The notes below the pieces were generated by a model. The model did not search any database and was not told the DNA's origin. It saw only the letters and a program-made list of their open reading frames with translations. The position numbers and the translations under genes are program-made. A DNA stretch of 64,000 nucleotides from Bombyx mori (taxonomy: Eukaryota; Arthropoda; Insecta; Lepidoptera; Bombycidae): assembly GCF_030269925.1 (NCBI RefSeq), contig NC_085123.1:8866001-8930000 (forward strand), in the 5' to 3' direction. Of the stretch, positions 42,851 through 62,933 are shown piece by piece. Each line of letters begins with the position of its first letter. Position 1 is the first letter of the stretch.

Positions 42851-43122
42851 TGTATATAGATATATATTTAAGATTAGGCTGTACGGTATTAAACTTTTGC
42901 CTTTCCAGTTGAAAAAATAAAACTACTAGTTACTACTACTGATCAAATGTCAAGTTTTATGAAAAATATGTAATTGAAAATCAAATTGAAATTTTAAATT
43001 ATCTTCTTTCTTGAGAACGATTTGAAACTGTGAATAGCTGTTATTTTAAGTTACAAATCTATAATTAAACTGAATAATTAATGAAGGCCTGCAAGTTTAA
43101 CAATAACCAATAAGCGCTACCA

Positions 43123-43507
43123 ATGGCTACAAAAATTTTAAGACATATTTTGCGACTTCCGTCTTCTCATTTTATGTATAGAAGATGGGAAAGCTCAAAC
43201 ACAAAAGTGGCTGTGTATGATCCTTTTGCTAATAAGCCAAAGAAAAATAAAGATACATATTTGGAAGCAATCAAAATGTTTGAAAATCAGGACAACAGAA
43301 GAAGAGGACACGTCGAATTTATCTATGCCGCCTTAGCTAGAATGAAGGAATTTGGTGTGCATAAAGACTTACAAGCGTACAAAGCATTAGTAGACGTACT
43401 GCCCAAAGGCAAATTTATACCGTCAAATATATTTCAGGCTGAATTCATGCACTATCCGAAGCAACAGCAGTGCGCTGTGGATCTCCTTGAACAGATGGAA
43501 GATAATA
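43123..43507 (+). CDS. ECSIT: ECSIT exon 1
   Basis: Starts at ATG 43123; donor ATA/GTATGG at 43508. Leaves phase 1. The open frame continues 26 nt into the intron to a TAA, which is not the real end. Confidence 0.92.
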
Positions 43508-45704
43508 GTATGGATATCAGATTGTTATGTTAAACATTAATACTTATAATCTCTTTGGTAGTAATTTGTATTGGGCTTCAATAAAAAAAAAAAAATTAAA
43601 AAAAAAAATTTGAATACAATTTGTAAATGTAATAAATCTGTTGTTTTATCCTGTGTCACTTGAAAGGACAATTATACAATTAAAAGTACACAAACAAGCT
43701 AAATAGCCACTTGAACAGCCAATATTAACAATCATTACAAATAACACTATAATACACAAGCCAAGTTTAAAATTTACGTTATTCCATAAAATTGCTAAGG
43801 TATGACTACTGATAATTATTTTTTTATTAAATTCACAGAAGTAATGCCAGACAGTGAACTAGAGCAAATGTTATTGAACGTTTTTGGAAAAAGAGGCATA
43901 CCTCTTAGAAAGTTTTGGCGCATGCTGTACTGGATGCCTAAATTCAAGAATCTAAGTCCATGGTATTTACCAGATGAATTGCCGAATGACACATTAGAAC
44001 TTGCCAAAATGGCTATTCATCGGATAACTTCCGTTGATCCTACTATGAAAATTGAAATTTGGCAGGTGAAAAATTCTTTCATTTCTCTAGTTATGATTAC
44101 AGTACCAACTGTATAGTGAAAGATGTTTATAAGTCAAAATTTAGTGATTTGTAATTAAGAGCCCATTTAATTAAAGGAGGGTGTATATTTGCTTTATGCA
44201 TTACAGTTTGACAAGAAGTAAATTCGTTAATCAGTAAGAATGAAATATGCTCACTTTTCCCAGGATAAAGTATTTCTTTTGTCATTTTCTGGTCTTTAAA
44301 CTACTAGATGGCTTGTACATCTGTTGGCATATAAAATTAAACCATTAAAACCTTTCATTTTTATATATCATTCATAAATTATTGAGAATGTAATACATAA
44401 AGTATACGTTTTAAATGGAATCTGGAATATAGACTTAGACGTCATGTCTCAAGATGAGTGATTTCAAACACATTATGATGTTTATGCATACCGGTGTCCA
44501 CTTAATGCCAGAAGGGCCATGGTCAATCTCATTTGTGCGATGAATGCAAAATACAAAGTTTCCATCATTTCTCACACTTATTAGTTGATATAAACATACA
44601 ATACAATTCTAATTTTTGTCAGACAGAAGAAATTGAAGCTTGCATAGATAAAACATGGATAGTAAGTGCCCAAAGTGAAACACAAAAGATATTACTCTCA
44701 GAGCAACCCCCTGATGAGCCCCTTGTTGTAAGAGGACCTTACGAAGTGTATTTAAAGGAGCAAGTTGTCACTTACTTTACATTATTGGGTAAAGTAAGAC
44801 CAGAACATAAAGATGACTTTGACCAAGATGGTATGAATTTATTACCAAATTTTTATTGCAACTTAGTAGTACTAACTACTAGTAACTAGTAGTCCAGTTT
44901 ATTATCTGGCCTAAGAAGTAAAAGAGCCAGTACTTTTTTTAGCTTTAGCATTCTGATTCCCTAATGCATATCATTTTTGATGTGTTCAAAACAGTTGGTG
45001 CTATGCTGACACCATTAAAAATGAAACTATTAACATATTTCTTATTTTAATATCACTGGTTAAATTTTTAGATGTATCAAATTTAAAGAAACCTTCCGGA
45101 ATACCTGGTTTTATTGGTCAAACTACATTACCCGTAGTTAAATGTACTGTACATGAGCAGGATGATGGTACAATAGTAGCTGTATGTGCCACAGGTAATG
45201 AATTATGAACATAATATATATTACATGTTTCGCCTTTCTGAATTAGAATTACCAAGTTATTATTATCAAAGTAAATCCAATAACACCGATATAGTATTCT
45301 CCCGAAACCTCATTTGCAAAAGGATGGAACAATTATGTCATAGAAGTTCAGTAAACGCTAGTGGGAAGTTAATTATGTTATGTTGCAAACAACATTTCTG
45401 GAAATATACTGTCAAAGAATGGCAGTTCTGGGTAGTATAGATGAATACTGAAATAACAACTACAATTTTATTATGCTTAGGAACTTCTTTTTCAATAAAC
45501 ATAATTACATATTAAGAAGCTATTTTTGTTACAGGTTCATCATCACGAGATTCTTTGTTATCGTGGATAAGATTATTAGAGAAATATGACAATTCAGTTC
45601 TATCAAATCTACCAGTGATTTTCACTCTTACTGCACCTAGCAATGACGTTGTAGTACAGGAAACACAGCCAGCTGCCGAAGATGTAAAAAGAGTGCAAAA
45701 TTAA
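43123..45704 (+). CDS. ECSIT: ECSIT, mitochondrial complex I assembly factor / Toll-pathway adaptor (five exons)
   Basis: Exons 43123-43507, 43839-44065, 44623-44830, 45072-45194 and 45535-45704 join in phase to 371 codons (370 residues), normal for insect ECSIT. The N-terminus (MATKILRHILRLPSSHFMYR) is basic and hydroxylated like a mitochondrial presequence. Family-typical blocks follow: YDPFANKPKKNKDTYLEAIK, VEFIYAALARMKEFGVHKDL, AVDLLEQMED, then KVMPDSELEQMLLNVFGKRG, FWRMLYWMPKFKNLSPWYLP, VVRGPYEVYLKEQ and the C-terminal CATGSSSRDSLLSWIRLLEK. In mammals ECSIT works with NDUFAF1 and ACAD9 in complex I assembly and also binds TRAF6; the insect role is inferred by homology. Introns are short (about 240-560 bp), unlike the neighbouring gene. 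Convergent with TM2D1. Confidence 0.95.
43839..44065 (+). CDS. ECSIT: ECSIT exon 2
   Basis: Acceptor AATTCACAG, donor CAG/GTGAAA. Encodes VMPDSELEQMLLNVFGKRGI through KIEIWQ; ends phase 0. Confidence 0.92.
44440..44545 (+). mobile_element. Very old Bm1-like remnant in ECSIT intron 2
   Basis: ATGTCTCAAGATGAGTG, GGTGTCCACTTAATGCCAG and GGGCCATGGTCAATCTC follow Bm1 order with heavy decay. Confidence 0.4.
44623..44830 (+). CDS. ECSIT: ECSIT exon 3
   Basis: Acceptor TTTTTGTCAG, donor GATG/GTATGA. Encodes TEEIEACIDKTWIVSAQSET through HKDDFDQD; the alternative AG four bases on would break the frame. Confidence 0.9.
45072..45194 (+). CDS. ECSIT: ECSIT exon 4
   Basis: Acceptor ATTTTTAG, donor ACAG/GTAATG. 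Encodes VSNLKKPSGIPGFIGQTTLP then VVKCTVHEQDDGTIVAVCAT. Too short to show up as a long frame by itself. Confidence 0.9.
45535..45704 (+). CDS. ECSIT: ECSIT exon 5
   Basis: Acceptor TTTTTGTTACAG; encodes SSSRDSLLSWIRLLEKYDNS through DVKRVQN and TAA at 45702-45704. ATTAAA at 45848-45853 is a likely polyadenylation signal. Confidence 0.9.
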
Positions 45705-48477: not shown

Positions 48478-50581
48478 AGTCCCTCCGTAGACCCAGAGGT
48501 TCCAAGCGATCCGCGAGAGCAGGACTATCGACCATCCGAACAGCCCGTTTCTGTATGGAGTCAAATGGAAGTAGCTGGTATTTGGGAGCCCCGGCCCAGA
48601 GGTGAGAGCAGTACTCCACGCGAGGTCGGACCTGCGCCTTATAAAGCGCAAGTCTCTGTCCAGGCGTGAAATACCGCTTCGCTCTGTTAAGAACTCCCAA
48701 CATTTTAGAGGCCAATATGGCTTTACCTTCCAAATGACTCCGAAACTGGACATCGCTCGAAATATCGACCCCCAGAATCCCGATACTCGCGGAAAGCTGC
48801 AGGGATACTCCTTGAAATTCCGGCGCCATGACAAAAGGGTCCTTCTTCGCAGTGAACGCGCAAACCTGTGTCTTCAATGGGTTGAACTTATCGGCCATCA
48901 GAGTCTCTCTCGAAGCGTTGTACACGAGAGGCGATTAAAACTTGTGTCTGAAGTGGAGAACTCTCTGGGGCGGGTCTCCAAGTGGGGTGAACTGAATTCG
49001 ATATATCGCGCATCCCCCGTGCTATCATCCCCGTGCAGTATGAAAAGCGTGGGGGAGAGCACTGAACCTTGTGGAACACCAGCGTTGATGGTCATGGTAT
49101 CGGAGCAGCAGCCGTCGACGACAACTGTGATGCTCCGTCCATCCAAAAAGCTAGCGATCTACTTGCAGAGTCCCTCAGGGATCCCGTATGCTGGAAGCTT
49201 CGATAGAAGTGCCCTATGCCAGACCCTGTCGAAGGCCTTCGCGATGTCAAGACTCACAGCGAGAGCCTCGCCCTTGCTTTCCAAGGCTTCAGCCCATTTA
49301 TGTGTGAGGTATACAAGAAGATCGCCAGCTGAGCGACCATGACGGAAACCGTACTGCCGGTCACTGATCAGCTGGCGATCCTCAAAATACTTAAGAAGTT
49401 GGATGTTTATGATTCGCTCCATCACCTTGGAAAGCAAGGAAGTTATCGCGATAGGTCTGTAATTCGAGGGGTCCGACCGGTCACCCTTTTTGGGGATAGG
49501 GTGGACATGAGCAGTCTTCCATGAAGACGGAACCCTGTTGGTATTGTACGAGAGGCGATATAGACGCGTTAGCGCGGGTGTCAACTCAGGGGCGCATGTT
49601 TTTAGAACCACTGCGGGGATGCAATCTGGCCCACTCGACTTATGGACATAAAGAAACCGAAGCTCCTGTCTGACCGCACGCTGTGTGATGCGAATCTCAG
49701 GCATGTAGCTGTCACACCGGGAGATGTTGGGCGGCGTGGCTCCTCCGTCATCCAAAGTCGAGTATGAGGCAAAGAGCTTGACCAGATGGTCAGCCTTCTC
49801 CTTCGCACTATGAGCCAGACTGTCATTGGACTTACGCAGTGGTGGAAGGCTAGACCTGCAGAAGTTACCTTCTGCAGCCTTAGCCAGCGACCAGAAAGCA
49901 CGGCTCCCAGAGGGATAGCTATTCAGTCGCTCGCCAATTCTGGCAACGTGCTCCGACTTCGCCTTGGCAATAGCCCTCTTATAGGACCTAGAGGCGGCGT
50001 TAAATTTCCGACTTTTCTCCGATATATCAGGATCCCGGCATCTCCTAGCAACATTAAATGCCACGTATGCAGACCGCTTGAGGCGTGCAGCATCCCTACT
50101 GGCTTTATTATACCAGGGTTTGCTGCGACCCCCGACGGGCACCTCAGAAGAAGGAATGAATAATTCCATTCCCTGAAGCACCACGTCTTTAAGTTGGTCC
50201 GTACAGACGTCAGGATCATCGGAGGAAAAGCAGAGCCGCCCCCATGGGTAGGATGCGTAAAATTCACGCATTCCATCCCAGTCTGCTGACCTGTACCGCC
50301 AAACTCTTCGAAACCCGGTCGTCGTTCGACGACTAGGACGAGAGAGTGGTATGGCAGCACGGATAAGGCAGTGATCAGACGATCCAAGTGGAGCGTCGAC
50401 CACCACACTGTATCCAGCTGGGTGAGTGGTCAGCAGAAGGTTCAACAAAGAAGGCTCGTGCCCCTCAATGTCTGGGACACGGGTGGGCTGTGTCAACAGT
50501 TGAGAAAGGCCGTAGGACAAGGCGGAATCGTAGGCAGCCCGACCCGGGAGGTCAGTGGTTCTGGACCCCAACCACTCCTAA
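48478..50581 (-). pseudogene. Truncated CR1/Jockey-like LINE, reverse transcriptase (broken)
   Basis: The 470-codon frame (50571-49159) begins at the end of the endonuclease domain (PLGSSDHCLIRAAIPLSRPS) and runs into reverse transcriptase (KTAHVHPIPKKGDRSDPSNY then RPIAIT; DRQYGFRHGRSAGDLLVYLT; AVSLDIAKAFDRVWHRALLS). A frame shift near 49160 leads to INAGVPQGSVLSPTLFILH, and the catalytic YADD region is reduced to HGDD by a small deletion. A third frame (48925-48338) gives the thumb and C-terminal part (FTPGQRLALYKAQVRPRVEY). It stops at RRDF and lacks the 3' tail present at 1861-2256. Both ends missing plus frame breaks mean it is dead. Confidence 0.85.
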
Positions 50582-58973: not shown

Positions 58974-61900
58974 CTAAGAGCCGTGGAAACAAACATAAAT
59001 GAGTACACACGTGGAAACGCAATGCTTACACTAAATAAATACTAATAAAAGCTATTATTGTATTGTATATGTATAAACCAGCTTTTGCCCGCGACTTCGT
59101 CCGCGTGGAATAGTTACTTTGGCATAACGCAAAATTTTACCCCCCCCCCCCACTTCATTTACGTAGAAAGTGAAGATATTTTTGAATTATAGAATGTTGA
59201 GGAGCTATTTAAGCTCCTATTTTGAAACATTCTTTATCGGTGCTCCACTTGTATTGTTCTTACTGTGATGTTATATAGCCCATAGCAGCGGTCGGGGAAC
59301 TTTTTTAATTATTACCCCAAAATATTTTTGTGTAAGTTGATATTACCCCATGGCGACGAACAAAAAAAAACAAAATGGCTTCTTTTTAGTATCTTTCATA
59401 TTATAGCCTCCATGATAATTTTGAAAAAAATACAATGACTCAAAATTTTACGATTCTAAAGAAGTTTAACTTCAATATATACTTTTTACTCACAAAAGTT
59501 TCATTTTTACCCCCCAAAATTTAATTTTACCCCATTTGGGGTAATTAACCCTTGTTCCCCGACCGTTCTGGCCTATAGCCTTCTTCGGTAAATGGGCTAT
59601 CTAACACTGAAATAATTTTTCAAATCGGACCAGTAGGTCCTGAGATAAACGCGTTCAAACAAACAAACTCTTCAGCTTTATAATATTAAGTACAGATAGG
59701 CATAAATAAATTAGTTATGTACCTACAACACTGTCTGTCAACTGTTTTAAAAAAAAATGCAATATTTTCAAAAAAAATATTAATAAATTGAATTTAAATC
59801 TTGTGTTGTATTTAGATTATGGTCCATTTTCGATCATTGGGCAAACATTCTATCTAACTATCTTGCATCCATTGCTGGACATACCATAGGACTCCCACAC
59901 TCAGCAGATTCAGGTATTTTTATTGGGTGGACGAGCTCACAGCCGACCTGGTGTTATATGGTTACCGGAGCCAATACACATGTACAACGTAAACGCCGCC
60001 ACCCACCTTGAGATACAAGTTCTAAGGTCTCAGTATAGTTACAACGGCTGCCCCACCCTTCAAACCGAAACGAATTACTGCTTCACGGCAGAAATAGGCG
60101 GGGTGGTGGTACCTACCCGGGCGGACAGTAAAATATTTGGGCGAATAGTACCTACGTTATTTTAAACAAAACGCAGTTGGCGCCGCAAGCGTGCTCACGG
60201 CTGCTCAAAGTACTCACGTATTGAAACTTGGAGCTTGTTGCTGTTGTTGCTGACCAGATTGCTGAGCTAGATTACCGAACGTGAGGGTGTTCTGCGTCGC
60301 TAAATTCTCGAAAGTCGAGTTCGACTGTGTAGACCCGAAACCTGAACATTAAAAGTTTTTGTAAAGACAAATTTGGTGGAACTGATGAGGAAATCAATAA
60401 GGACACATGGATTAAAGAAAAAAGGTAGGAAATGGAAACGTTTCGCTGTCTCTCTCTCGCACTGTTACGCCCACCTGGCTGTGACGTCATAAGCCTTTAC
60501 TTTTTTTTGTTATCCGATAATTTATTTTACCGGTATCATTAAATTGGTTCTATGTAGGCAATTTCTCGAAGGATTTACAGCATGTAATTTTTAAACACTT
60601 TGGAATAAATTTAATATTCTATATTAGGGGCATTTTTTCCCGGTCACCTGTGCGTATATTTTTTTTCACTGATAACATATTATCGAGGTGTGGAAGGCTA
60701 TTTTGGCAACTTTACAGGATAGCTATTTAAAGTTAAAATTTGGAAAAAATATCATAACAAAAAGAATTCTTTAGCTATTTGAATGAAAAAATTTAATTTA
60801 TATTCAATTAAAAGCATCCGAACTGTTGATGCTGATAAAACGCACTTTTAATTACAGAGATAAATGTTACATATTAACCGAAATGTCGTTTAAGCCAAAT
60901 ATTCTTTCACCACTCAACATGTAAACAATATCTAAAGCTACCCCCAGACAAAAAAATTAATTACAGCGCGTTTCAGTCACATCTATACTAATATATAAAT
61001 CTACAGTGGTTTTTACGGATGCTCCGTTATAACTACTGAACCATATATCCGATTGACTTGAAACTTTGTATTCATGTAGAAAATACATGTACTTAATGGA
61101 TAGGCAAATATTTATATGAGTGTTGGACTCCCTACACAAGTTGCCGGGGCGTTTAATGATGAGAATCTTTGTGGGGGTGAGAAATAATAATGTTAATTTT
61201 AAATGCCCAGCGAAGCGGACTGGTACAGTTAGTAATTATATAATTTAAAAAAAAATGGCATGTTAGAATCTCATCTTCTTACCTGATATAGGACTGGCCA
61301 TTCCCCCAAACATTTTCCCGGGGGAGGTGTTCCCGAAGGCCGGAGTGCCGCCGAACACGCTTCCAGAACCGAACGAAGCCGGCGCTCCGAATCCGCTGTT
61401 CGGGCTCTTGTTGAATCCACCGAAAGACCCAAAGCCACTACCCGTAGGAGAACCAAAACTGTTCCAATCAAATACCAGTGGTTTTATTATCTATATCTAC
61501 GCTTGAAAGGCAAACGTGACTAAGCGACAATGCGTGAACTTTACAGTAGACTAATTTAAAGTTGAAATACCTGAAAAAAATCTATTTTAACGAATCTAGC
61601 TGTAGGATTGAAATGATTTTTATAGACTTAGAAATATAAATATTTTGGCGCATCGAATATGGTTATTTGCCTATCATTTATGTATATGTTTTTGATTTGA
61701 TTTGATATAAAGCAGTCATTGTCGCTTAGTCACATTTGCCTTTCAAGCGTCGATTTAAATAAAAATGAATTGCTGTTCGTTAGTCTCGAACTCGAGAACG
61801 GCTGGACCGATTTGGCTAATTTTGGTCTTGAATTATTTGTGGAAGTCCAGAGAAGGTTTAAAAGGTAGATAAATATGAAAAATCCTCGGAATCAAATAAA

Positions 61901-62933
61901 AATAACAATTTTGTTTTTCCTTTGATGTGTCCCCTGTCGGACGGATTCCTTTTGTTTGTTTTAAGTTTATTTTATACAAAAGCTTAGGTCTTTAATTTCT
62001 GATTGAGGCACTACGAAGTCTGCCGGGTCAGCTAGTACATACAAAAATTCAATCAATTTAAATGAATCAAATTCTTTATCCACGATTCGATACACGAACC
62101 GTAGAGTTTGCAAAATCATAAGCCAATATTATCAAGTTTTACTTAGAAGAAGGCGTTTATCCTTCTCCCTTGGGTCGTATTCCTCAATGCTGAGGGTCGT
62201 GACCATCCTTATGTAATCTCGCATAAAAGTTTCTAATAAGTCAGCTACAGAGCAATAAAATAGACTCAGTGGAAGATATTTTTTTCGTACCCCAAAGGGT
62301 AAGTTTTCCCGTTAATCACAAGAGGACAAACTGATTTTACATTTATGTCGCACACTTGTATTTATTTTTGCATTGAGTACGTTTCTCGAATGTTCCAGTT
62401 GTGCCGAGAGTGTTCTAATGGCCTCGAGAATGTTCTTGACTTATACGAGACCAAAACATTCGAGAATGTTCTAGTTCTAGCATCGAGAATGTTCTGGAAA
62501 ATTGTAGACACAATCGAAACGTTTATAAAGCGGTGATGTAGGCGATGTGAAGGCACCTTCTATTCGAATCAAAGCAAAACTGCGAATTGTGTAGGTAAGG
62601 TTTACCTTAAGATTTGTAAGTATTTCGACGAACAGTTTTATACATCCTTACCCGCAACTCATAACATTATTAAATCACTGCCATCTATTTTATTTCAATC
62701 AAACAACCTAGCGCTCTTTGGGAATGTTCGATTTTAGTGCTCATCGTCTTACCGGGGGTCTTTAAATGATATATATTCTTAAGCAGTTAATTATAAAGGA
62801 AAAGTATATAGCAATATTTATGGCAACATTACTTACTATACATTCGAGGCACTAATTAAATTTTTCACTTACCCAGCAGACTGACCGAATGTTGGCTTAG
62901 AACCGAATGCAGCAGGGCTACCAAAGCCGGGAG
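58943..62933 (-). CDS. Nup214: Nucleoporin Nup214, C-terminal FG-repeat exons (partial)
   Basis: Exons 62933-62873, 61458-61283, 60341-60218 and 58973-58943 on the minus strand join in phase and end at TAA. They encode an FG-rich tail with 13 FG dipeptides: PGFGSPAAFGSKPTFGQSAG, then GSFGGFNKSPNSGFG, VFGGTPAFGN, STFENLATQNTLTFGNLAQQ, a short glutamine run and a final PSFTGWRG. The order of FG repeats, the ATQNTLTFGNLAQQ block and the GWR end match the C-terminus of NUP214/CAN as I recall it. This is a cytoplasmic-face pore protein whose FG tail binds export receptors such as CRM1. The first visible exon enters with two bases, so the gene continues beyond the right edge, where the beta-propeller and coiled coil should lie. 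Introns carry Helitron, MITE and Bm1 insertions. Confidence 0.88.
59091..59688 (-). mobile_element. Helitron-like element with nested MITE
   Basis: Left end CCAGCTTTTGCCCGCGACTT and right end CAAACAAACTCTTCAGCTTT / ATAATATTAAG correspond to 2257-3275. A run of 13 C at about 59142 lies inside. The reversed terminal hairpin GCGGAC/GTCGCG fits a Helitron 3' end. Confidence 0.6.
59286..59570. mobile_element. hAT-like MITE with 8-bp target duplication
   Basis: Ends CAGCGGTCGGGGAAC and (reversed) CAGAACGGTCGGGGAAC are inverted. GCCCATAG (59278-59285) and GCCTATAG (59571-59578) are an 8-bp duplication with one difference. 285 bp, non-coding, with repeated TTACCCC motifs inside. It sits within the Helitron and is therefore younger. 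Confidence 0.8.
59913..60126 (-). mobile_element. Bm1 SINE, 5'-truncated
   Basis: TTTTTATTGGGTGGACGAGC to GGTGGTACCTACCCGGGCGG. An RTE-like trace (CCATTGCTGGACATACCATA) lies just to the left at 59865-59910. Confidence 0.88.
60218..60341 (-). CDS. Nup214: Nup214 penultimate exon
   Basis: Acceptor AATGTTCAG, donor AC/GTGAGT. Encodes FGSTQSN, STFENLATQNTLTFGNLAQQ, SGQQQQQQAPSFNT. Confidence 0.87.
60342..60981. other. Nup214 intron, no other feature
   Basis: AT-rich; no repeat copy recognised before the Helitron at 60982. The 72-codon frame at 60272-60490 is a shadow of the exon plus intron. Confidence 0.5.
60982..61234 (+). mobile_element. Non-autonomous Helitron, third copy of 9504
   Basis: Begins TCTATACTAATATATAAATC and ends AGCGGACTGGTACAGTTAGT; the terminal CTAG is changed to TTAG. 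Ends 49 bp before the Nup214 donor at 61282, oriented antisense to the gene. Confidence 0.7.
61283..61458 (-). CDS. Nup214: Nup214 FG exon
   Basis: Acceptor GATTGGAACAG, donor CAG/GTAAGA. Eight FG dipeptides (FGSPTGSGFGSFGG; GFGAPASFGSGSVFGG; AFGN; MFGG). Confidence 0.9.
61497..61752. mobile_element. MITE with about 35-bp inverted repeats, copy 2
   Basis: Same inverted repeats as 6300-6521 (CTACGCTTGAAAGGCAAACG... / ...TTGCCTTTCAAGCGTCG). 256 bp, inserted 38 bp upstream of the Nup214 exon acceptor. Confidence 0.8.
61755..62036 (+). mobile_element. Non-autonomous Helitron, second copy of 828
   Basis: TAAATAAAAATGAATTGCTG at the start, CTCGAGAACGGCTGGACCGA inside and GCCGGGTCAGCTAGT at the end. 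It immediately follows the MITE. Confidence 0.72.
62150..62235 (-). mobile_element. RTE-type LINE trace
   Basis: CCTCAATGCTGAGGGTCGTG is the reverse of the HDPQH-stop end of RTE reverse transcriptase. Confidence 0.45.
62383..62499 (+). promoter_or_regulatory. Cluster of heat-shock elements
   Basis: Three perfect three-unit elements, TTCTCGAATGTTC (62383-62395), TTCGAGAATGTTC (62459-62471) and GAATGTTCTGGAA (62487-62499), plus a near-perfect one at 62423-62435, fall within 117 bp. Alternating GAA/TTC units at 5-bp steps are the HSF-binding consensus. The elements are symmetric; orientation is taken from the TATA box that follows. Confidence 0.75.
62524..62529 (+). promoter_or_regulatory. TATA box after the heat-shock elements
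   Basis: TATAAAG lies 25 bp after the last element, a spacing like insect hsp promoters. Transcription would begin near 62554 on the plus strand, opposite to Nup214. TAG/GTAAGG at 62595 could be a splice donor for that transcript. Confidence 0.6.
62600..62872. other. Nup214 intron, downstream of the heat-shock-type promoter
   Basis: No long plus-strand frame follows, so any transcript would be non-coding or have its coding exon beyond the window. Confidence 0.45.
62873..62933 (-). CDS. Nup214: Nup214 FG exon, first in window
   Basis: Acceptor CTCTTACAG, donor GG/GTAAGT; 61 nt, PGFGSPAAFGSKPTFGQSA. Enters with two bases of a codon begun in an exon not found in the window. Confidence 0.85.

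What the first reader, a model, noticed from the sequence alone, without database searches (positions are those of the whole stretch)
62383..62600. Heat-shock-type promoter inside a Nup214 intron, pointing antisense
Seen: three perfect and one near-perfect HSF elements in 117 bp, then TATAAAG at the spacing used by insect hsp genes, then a possible 5' exon with a splice donor (TAG/GTAAGG at 62595). Known: such clusters drive strong heat-inducible transcription. Inferred: a stress-induced transcript, perhaps non-coding like fly hsr-omega or a stress-activated element, starts here on the plus strand and runs opposite to Nup214. No hsp coding frame follows in the window.
Basis: partly seen in the sequence, partly recalled or inferred. 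Interest (0 to 1): 0.75.

Follow-up and report, generated by a model that had tools for sequence, protein, structure and literature searches.

The report
Heat-shock promoter inside dispersed mobile repeat
The cluster of heat-shock control sites in this intron is the promoter part of an old scattered mobile-element repeat, probably the leftover end (solo LTR) of a retrotransposon, and not the start of a special stress gene.

Summary
In detail: 62383-62504 has three perfect and five near-perfect three-unit HSF sites, then TATAAAG at 62524. But 62379-~62666 is a diverged copy of a dispersed repeat of ~410-424 bp with at least 102 places in the genome. Copies share TG...CA-type ends, an HSF array, a TATA box and a tail; both flanks prefer ATAT, as expected of solo LTRs of a Ty3/gypsy-type retrotransposon. 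The splice donor at 62595 is private to this copy. Ten copies found with an array-free query hold 0-6 HSF sites, median 2.5, against ~0.1 in shuffles, so the array is a family trait, with short and long forms. The window copy has 8 sites; six hsp20/hsp70 upstream regions have 1-4. Best reading: fossil LTR of a retrotransposon that used the host's HSF, as ONSEN does in plants. No internal region was found; HSF binding, heat induction and present activity were not testable.

The parts
62379..62666 (+). Recognisable part of the repeat copy (solo-LTR remnant): array, TATA box, tail; CATAACA end at 62660-62666. The ~90-bp 5' leader of the family is not recognisable.
   Evidence: 39 genome places match 62383-62600, itself included; 3' tail aligns to 62666-62680 in several copies, z up to 19; upstream of ~62379 no copy of 26 aligns above z 1.9
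62383..62504 (+). HSF-site array: 3 perfect and 5 near-perfect three-unit sites
62524..62530 (+). TATAAAG box; a start near 62553-62556 is inferred from the usual ~30-bp spacing (recalled)
   Evidence: TATA positions in other copies
62595..62600 (+). GTAAGG, donor-like, private to this copy
   Evidence: 48 loosely alignable copies, 1 with GT[A/G]AG at a different position
61459..62872 (-). Intron of the FG-nucleoporin gene that holds the repeat copy (borders read by eye)
   Evidence: FG-repeat frames; Nucleoporin_FG E 1.5e-18 in L047
61283..61458 (-). FG-repeat exon below the intron (borders by eye)
   Evidence: no Pfam hit for this exon alone
62873..62933 (-). Short FG-repeat exon above the intron (borders by eye)

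Best explanation
The stretch is a degraded solo LTR of an old LTR-retrotransposon family, probably Ty3/gypsy-type, of this (probably silkworm) genome, lying antisense in a nucleoporin intron. The ancestral LTR carried an HSF-site array directly upstream of a TATA box, so stress-activated HSF trimers would have loaded on the array and driven the element's own RNA. Copies then multiplied, recombined to solo LTRs and decayed. Shown: the repeat family; array and TATA box as family traits; ATAT preference on both flanks; short and long array forms. Inferred: LTR nature (no internal region found), superfamily, HSF use, heat induction. Whether this copy still fires is open.
For: 102 separate places over four genome searches, each scoring at most 40 candidates. 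TG...CA-type ends and lengths of 410-424 bp in L016, L028, L051, L054, L057. Flank preference: 42 5' ends A55 T69 A64 T62 %, 19 3' ends A63 T74 A84 T74 %; exact ATAT on both sides in L054, L058 and L062. Array-free query: 9 of 10 newly read copies have 2 or more HSF sites, shuffles 0.06-0.14; two more copies from that search, L084 and L085, have 1 and 2. Array classes of repeated exact length. Array denser than six hsp20/hsp70 upstream regions of the same genome.
Against: No gag-pol, primer-binding site or polypurine tract seen. Within-copy match of the two 4-bp flanks is no better than between copies (2.36 against 2.23 of 4, p 0.27, n 14); in a looser set of 22 copies 3 of 36 length/offset settings reached p < 0.05 (best 0.004), none of them at 4 bp. 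The A preference at -5 is as high as at -4. The one same-strand pair at LTR-like distance (C17, 4.7 kb) has mates as diverged as unrelated copies. One of ten array-free-query copies has no HSF site. No expression or HSF data.
Confidence: 0.68

Rival explanations
1. A short non-autonomous DNA transposon (MITE-like, perhaps moved by a Ginger-type integrase with 4-bp target duplications; recalled) that carries an HSF-driven promoter, not an LTR.
For: No internal region in 38 copies with 3 kb on either side; 4-bp ATAT flank preference would fit too.
Against: The two ends share only about five inverted bases by eye; a promoter with TATA box two thirds along and a tail is LTR-like; the apparent inverted pair in L048 is a palindrome that includes the flanks.
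Confidence: 0.12
2. The palindromic GAA/TTC array serves another factor or a structural role, and HSF does not use it.
For: No binding or induction data exist here; the genome has many perfect four-unit sites outside the family (228 against 35 for the control pattern; 9 of 10 sampled places are not family copies).
Against: Exact 5-bp phasing, several sites per copy and a TATA box 19-24 bp downstream resemble the hsp20/hsp70 promoters of the same genome.
Confidence: 0.14
3. A stress-induced transcription unit of its own starts here, built on the repeat and spliced from 62594.
For: This copy keeps 8 sites: of 38 other copies first found, 4 have more, 2 as many, 32 fewer; the TATA box is intact and a donor-like GTAAGG follows.
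Against: The donor is not shared by other copies. The copy is no better kept at HSF columns than others (rank 19 of 43). The 38 copies were found through the array, so keeping it is partly selection by the search.
Confidence: 0.05
4. Chance cluster.
For: None beyond the modest excess of the strict pattern alone.
Against: 8 sites against a maximum of 4 in 60 simulated windows, and homologous arrays in other copies.
Confidence: 0.01

Closest known systems
ONSEN/COPIA78 and other heat-responsive COPIA retrotransposons of Brassicaceae (PMC5059998; passages read)
   Same: HSF elements (clusters of nGAAn units) upstream of the start in an LTR; array variants between copies and lineages; many solo LTRs and fragments.
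   Different: Plant Copia family with full-length active copies and measured heat induction; here an insect repeat with a gypsy-like target, old solo copies only, no internal region, no expression data, and up to 10 sites per copy. In ONSEN none of the 16 A. thaliana fragments or solo LTRs had functional elements; here solo copies keep many.
HSE-bearing Helitrons of Caenorhabditis (PMC6927752; passages and section 9)
   Same: A transposable element that spreads dense HSF-site clusters through an animal genome.
   Different: Helitrons are rolling-circle DNA transposons without target duplication; these ends are TG...CA with ATAT flanks. The section reports HSE enrichment within Helitrons only in Caenorhabditis among the genomes surveyed.
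Insect hsp20/hsp70 promoters of the same genome (L068-L073)
   Same: Phased GAA/TTC sites followed by a TATA box.
   Different: 1-4 sites in 821-871 bp, gap to TATA 27-31 bp in three of six, hsp frame downstream; here 8 sites, gap 19-24 bp, no hsp frame.
Drosophila hsr-omega (recalled)
   Same: Heat-inducible-type promoter with no protein-coding frame behind it.
   Different: hsr-omega is a single locus with its own transcript structure; this is one of many copies of a repeat.

Membership tests
solo LTR of an LTR retrotransposon | TG...CA ends | tested here: met
   many copies with recognisable ends start TG-type and end CA-type, several decayed
solo LTR of an LTR retrotransposon | short target-site duplication of fixed length | tested here: inconclusive
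   ATAT preference on both flanks of the family, exact ATAT pairs in L054, L058, L062; within-copy test p 0.27, n 14
solo LTR of an LTR retrotransposon | two LTRs around gag-pol in at least some copies, with PBS and PPT | tested here: inconclusive
   none in 38 copies with 3 kb flanks; one same-strand pair 4.7 kb apart, only its ends read, undecided; a second at 3.0 kb (C17:4954381/4957428) reads from its query coordinates as one copy split by an insert
Ty3/gypsy superfamily | gypsy-type reverse transcriptase and integrase | not tested
   no internal region at hand; the ATAT target as a gypsy-group habit is recalled
heat-responsive transposable element (ONSEN-like) | HSF elements in the promoter part of the element | tested here: met
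heat-responsive transposable element (ONSEN-like) | heat-induced transcription through HSF | not testable with these tools
   no expression or binding data
Helitron | TC...CTRR ends, no target duplication (recalled) | tested here: not met
   ends are TG...CA with ATAT flanks
hsp gene promoter | hsp frame downstream | tested here: not met
   17 HSP20 and 39 HSP70 matches genome-wide, none in the window; nearest to any listed family copy is 93 kb
hsr-omega-like stress gene | unique locus with its own exon and splice structure | tested here: not met
   102 places; donor private

The most novel reading that the evidence does not exclude
This genome holds a dispersed network of retained LTR heat-shock promoters, denser in HSF sites than the hsp20/hsp70 promoters examined. 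One lineage expanded its array and so drew more HSF, and some solo copies, this one included, still fire on heat shock and start antisense or chimeric transcripts in host genes, so that part of the insect's heat-shock transcriptome is written by fossil retrotransposons.
Probability: 0.15. Interest if true: 0.75.

Novelty: new member of a known kind. Interest (0 to 1): 0.47.

Why it matters
HSF-driven retrotransposons are described in plants and HSF-rich Helitrons in nematodes. In ten searches of a held open-access library the listings I saw named no LTR family with such an array in an insect; one search listed 10 of 64 papers, and subscription papers and bioRxiv's own set are not held. One passage (PMC5059998) cites a Drosophila review for 'canonical TF binding motifs in TE promoters'; that review is not held, so an earlier insect case cannot be excluded. 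If active, the family would be a source of heat-inducible promoters beside host genes, and its short and long array forms would let one test in an animal whether array expansion drives transposon success.

Tried and rejected
Chance: rejected. Simple tandem repeat: TRF reports no array there. Foldback transposon: suggested for a moment by the pair C4:6144210/6144682, but L048 is a perfect 936-bp palindrome that takes in the flanks. Kinship with hsp promoters: of 56 HSP20/HSP70 matches the nearest to any of 102 family places is 93 kb away; four hsp20 upstream regions gave no BLAST hit to the 43 aligned copies; of two hsp70 regions one hits through a dispersed repeat also present in some copy segments (a SINE, as I take it) and a 17-bp HSF core. 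'The family makes most of the genome's strong HSF sites': not so; of 228 perfect TTC-first four-unit sites (control pattern 35; 50 listed) the ten places listed on C1 were read and 1 of 10 is a family copy. Selection on this copy: no sign (rank 19 of 43). The GAA-first four-unit count, a three-mismatch copy count and a scan of the pair's middle were not obtained.

Rows dropped: one search aligned 43 copies; 12 with large insertions or truncations, and L048, L062, L066, L067, were left out. One search used 42 5' ends, 19 3' ends and 14 copies with both, of 57. One search found both anchors in 28 of 70 sequences. One search read 10 of the 40 matches: none fetched before, chosen where the match began near the array side; two of them (L086, L095) match only 3 and 5 family copies. 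L041 and L042 share flanks and are one duplicated segment.

Full report
Observation. The window holds eight three-unit HSF sites of 8/9 or better in 62383-62504, three of them perfect, and TATAAAG at 62524. The best 120 bp elsewhere in the window has 2 sites and the best of 60 Markov sequences 4. The host gene on the minus strand is an FG nucleoporin: an FG-repeat exon at about 61283-61458 and, in the next 8 kb, an ORF with Nucleoporin_FG at E 1.5e-18. The name Nup214 was not itself tested.

It is a repeat. 62383-62600 matches 39 places including itself. Natural copies in L022 and L016 give 51 and 43 matches, and the array-free 3' half of L051 gives 40. Merged within 1.5 kb, the first three searches give 86 places and all four 102. 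At most 40 candidates were scored per search (39, 56, 72 and 94 in the first look), so these are lower bounds. Copies with both ends intact and no large insert run 410-424 bp (L016, L028, L051, L054, L057). In order they show a TG-type 5' end, a leader of about 90 bp, the HSF array, a TATA box, a tail and a CA-type end. The window copy keeps array, TATA box and tail to about 62666; its leader is not recognisable.

What kind of repeat. At 42 5' ends the four bases outside are A 55, T 69, A 64, T 62 %; at 19 3' ends A 63, T 74, A 84, T 74 %. The 3' preference stops at +5; on the 5' side -5 is still A 57 %. TAT stands just before the 5' end in 17 of 42 copies against a mean of 2.05 at other offsets. 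L054 and L058 and L062 show exact ATAT on both sides. I read this as insertion with a 4-bp target duplication at ATAT, which I recall as a habit of the gypsy group. Against it: the two flanks of one copy match no better than flanks of different copies (2.36 against 2.23 of 4, p 0.27, n 14), which a strong target preference could explain; in a looser set of 22 copies, 3 of 36 length/offset settings were nominally significant, at 5-6 bp and not at 4. In 38 copies with 3 kb either side, no flank beyond the ends is shared by more than a few copies, apart from L041/L042, a duplicated segment. So these are solo LTRs or a short element complete in itself. A same-strand pair 4.7 kb apart on C17 was read at its ends only; the mates are no closer to each other than to other copies, and the case is undecided.

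The array belongs to the family. The first 38 copies were found through the array, so their median of 5 sites is biased. I therefore searched with a query without HSF array and read the upstream stretch of 10 of its 40 matches: 2, 6, 2, 4, 2, 2, 3, 4, 3 and 0 sites, against 0.06-0.14 in shuffles. Two more from the same search, L084 and L085, have 1 and 2. Between two fixed anchors, 28 of 70 sequences could be measured: six at 48-49 bp, seven at 163-177 bp, the rest between or beyond. The eight below 90 bp average 2.4 sites, the ten of 170 bp or more 6.2. Six separate insertions of the same short length argue for source elements that differed in array length, not for chance deletions. Which form came first is open. 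L062 shows HSF sites three times at a 114-bp period.

Comparison with host promoters. Four hsp20 and two hsp70 upstream regions (821-871 bp) hold 2, 4, 1, 3, 2 and 3 sites. In three of them (L069, L071, L073) the last site ends 27-31 bp before the TATA box; in the window it is 19-24 bp. So the window array is denser and sits somewhat closer. The nearest of 56 HSP20/HSP70 matches to any family place is 93 kb off.

How much of the genome's HSF sites this family supplies. Perfect TTC-first four-unit sites number 228 against 35 for the control pattern. Of the ten places listed on C1, 1 is a family copy. The family is thus a minor source of such sites; its mark is density, not number.

Constraint. 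In a three-way comparison over 43 copies, columns in HSF units agree in 0.90 of cases, other array columns in 0.78 and columns outside in 0.73; 39 of 43 copies show the excess. Requiring intact sites in two reference copies, and repeat units aligning with one another, inflate this, so I take it only as a hint that active source elements kept the sites. The window copy ranks 19 of 43: nothing special.

The supposed exon. At the homologous place 48 copies can be loosely aligned and 1 has any GT[A/G]AG, at another position. The donor at 62595 arose in this copy and is no evidence for an evolved transcript.

Mechanism. HSF, activated by heat or other stress, would bind the array and start the element's RNA ~30 bp past the TATA box, as HSF elements do in ONSEN (PMC5059998, passages). 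Short arrays would respond more weakly than long ones, as that paper reports for weak and strong element types. In this locus such RNA would run antisense to the nucleoporin gene. All of this is inference from anatomy. The same paper is also a caution: in A. thaliana no ONSEN fragment or solo LTR was heat-responsive.

Novelty. HSF sites in transposable elements are known in plants and in Caenorhabditis Helitrons (PMC6927752, passages and section 9). A wild-silkmoth LTR paper (PMC6563192, passages) does not hold the terms heat shock, HSF or HSE in its main text, and a fly hsp70 paper (PMC3071340, passages) speaks of elements inserted at hsp70 genes, not of elements carrying HSF sites, in the passages seen. 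Ten searches listed no insect LTR report of this kind, with the limits given under Why it matters. I class it as a new member of a known kind.

On recounting I added the union of four searches (102), the nominal results, the extra dropped rows and the Drosophila citation. The confidence of the best explanation was set with these in view.

Noticed in passing
genome G000, all contigs: Perfect four-unit HSF sites TTCNNGAANNTTCNNGAA number 228 against 35 for the control pattern; 9 of 10 places read on C1 are not copies of this family, so some other source of the excess remains unexplained.
   Followed up: partly
L062 (C11:16610100-16611400): A family copy with HSF sites repeated three times at a 114-bp period, i.e. 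an array expanded in tandem.
   Followed up: partly
L009 (C27:8528353-8534500): Two family copies stand in opposite directions about 540 bp apart; the second, inverted one shows both ends.
   Followed up: partly
L048 (C4:6143500-6145600): Perfect 936-bp inverted repeat with a 171-bp spacer that takes in a family copy and its flanks; assembly artefact or recent inverted duplication.
   Followed up: partly
G000:C27:8909278-8933815: Four near-identical HSP70 frames in tandem; several HSP20 genes on the same contig.
   Followed up: partly
window 43114-44889 (+): Exons of an ECSIT gene: ECSIT_N E 8.8e-42, ECSIT_C E 2.6e-13.
   Followed up: no
window 49159-50577 (-): A 472-aa open frame with a reverse transcriptase domain (RVT_1, E 2.4e-17), probably a non-LTR retrotransposon (recalled look).
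   Followed up: no
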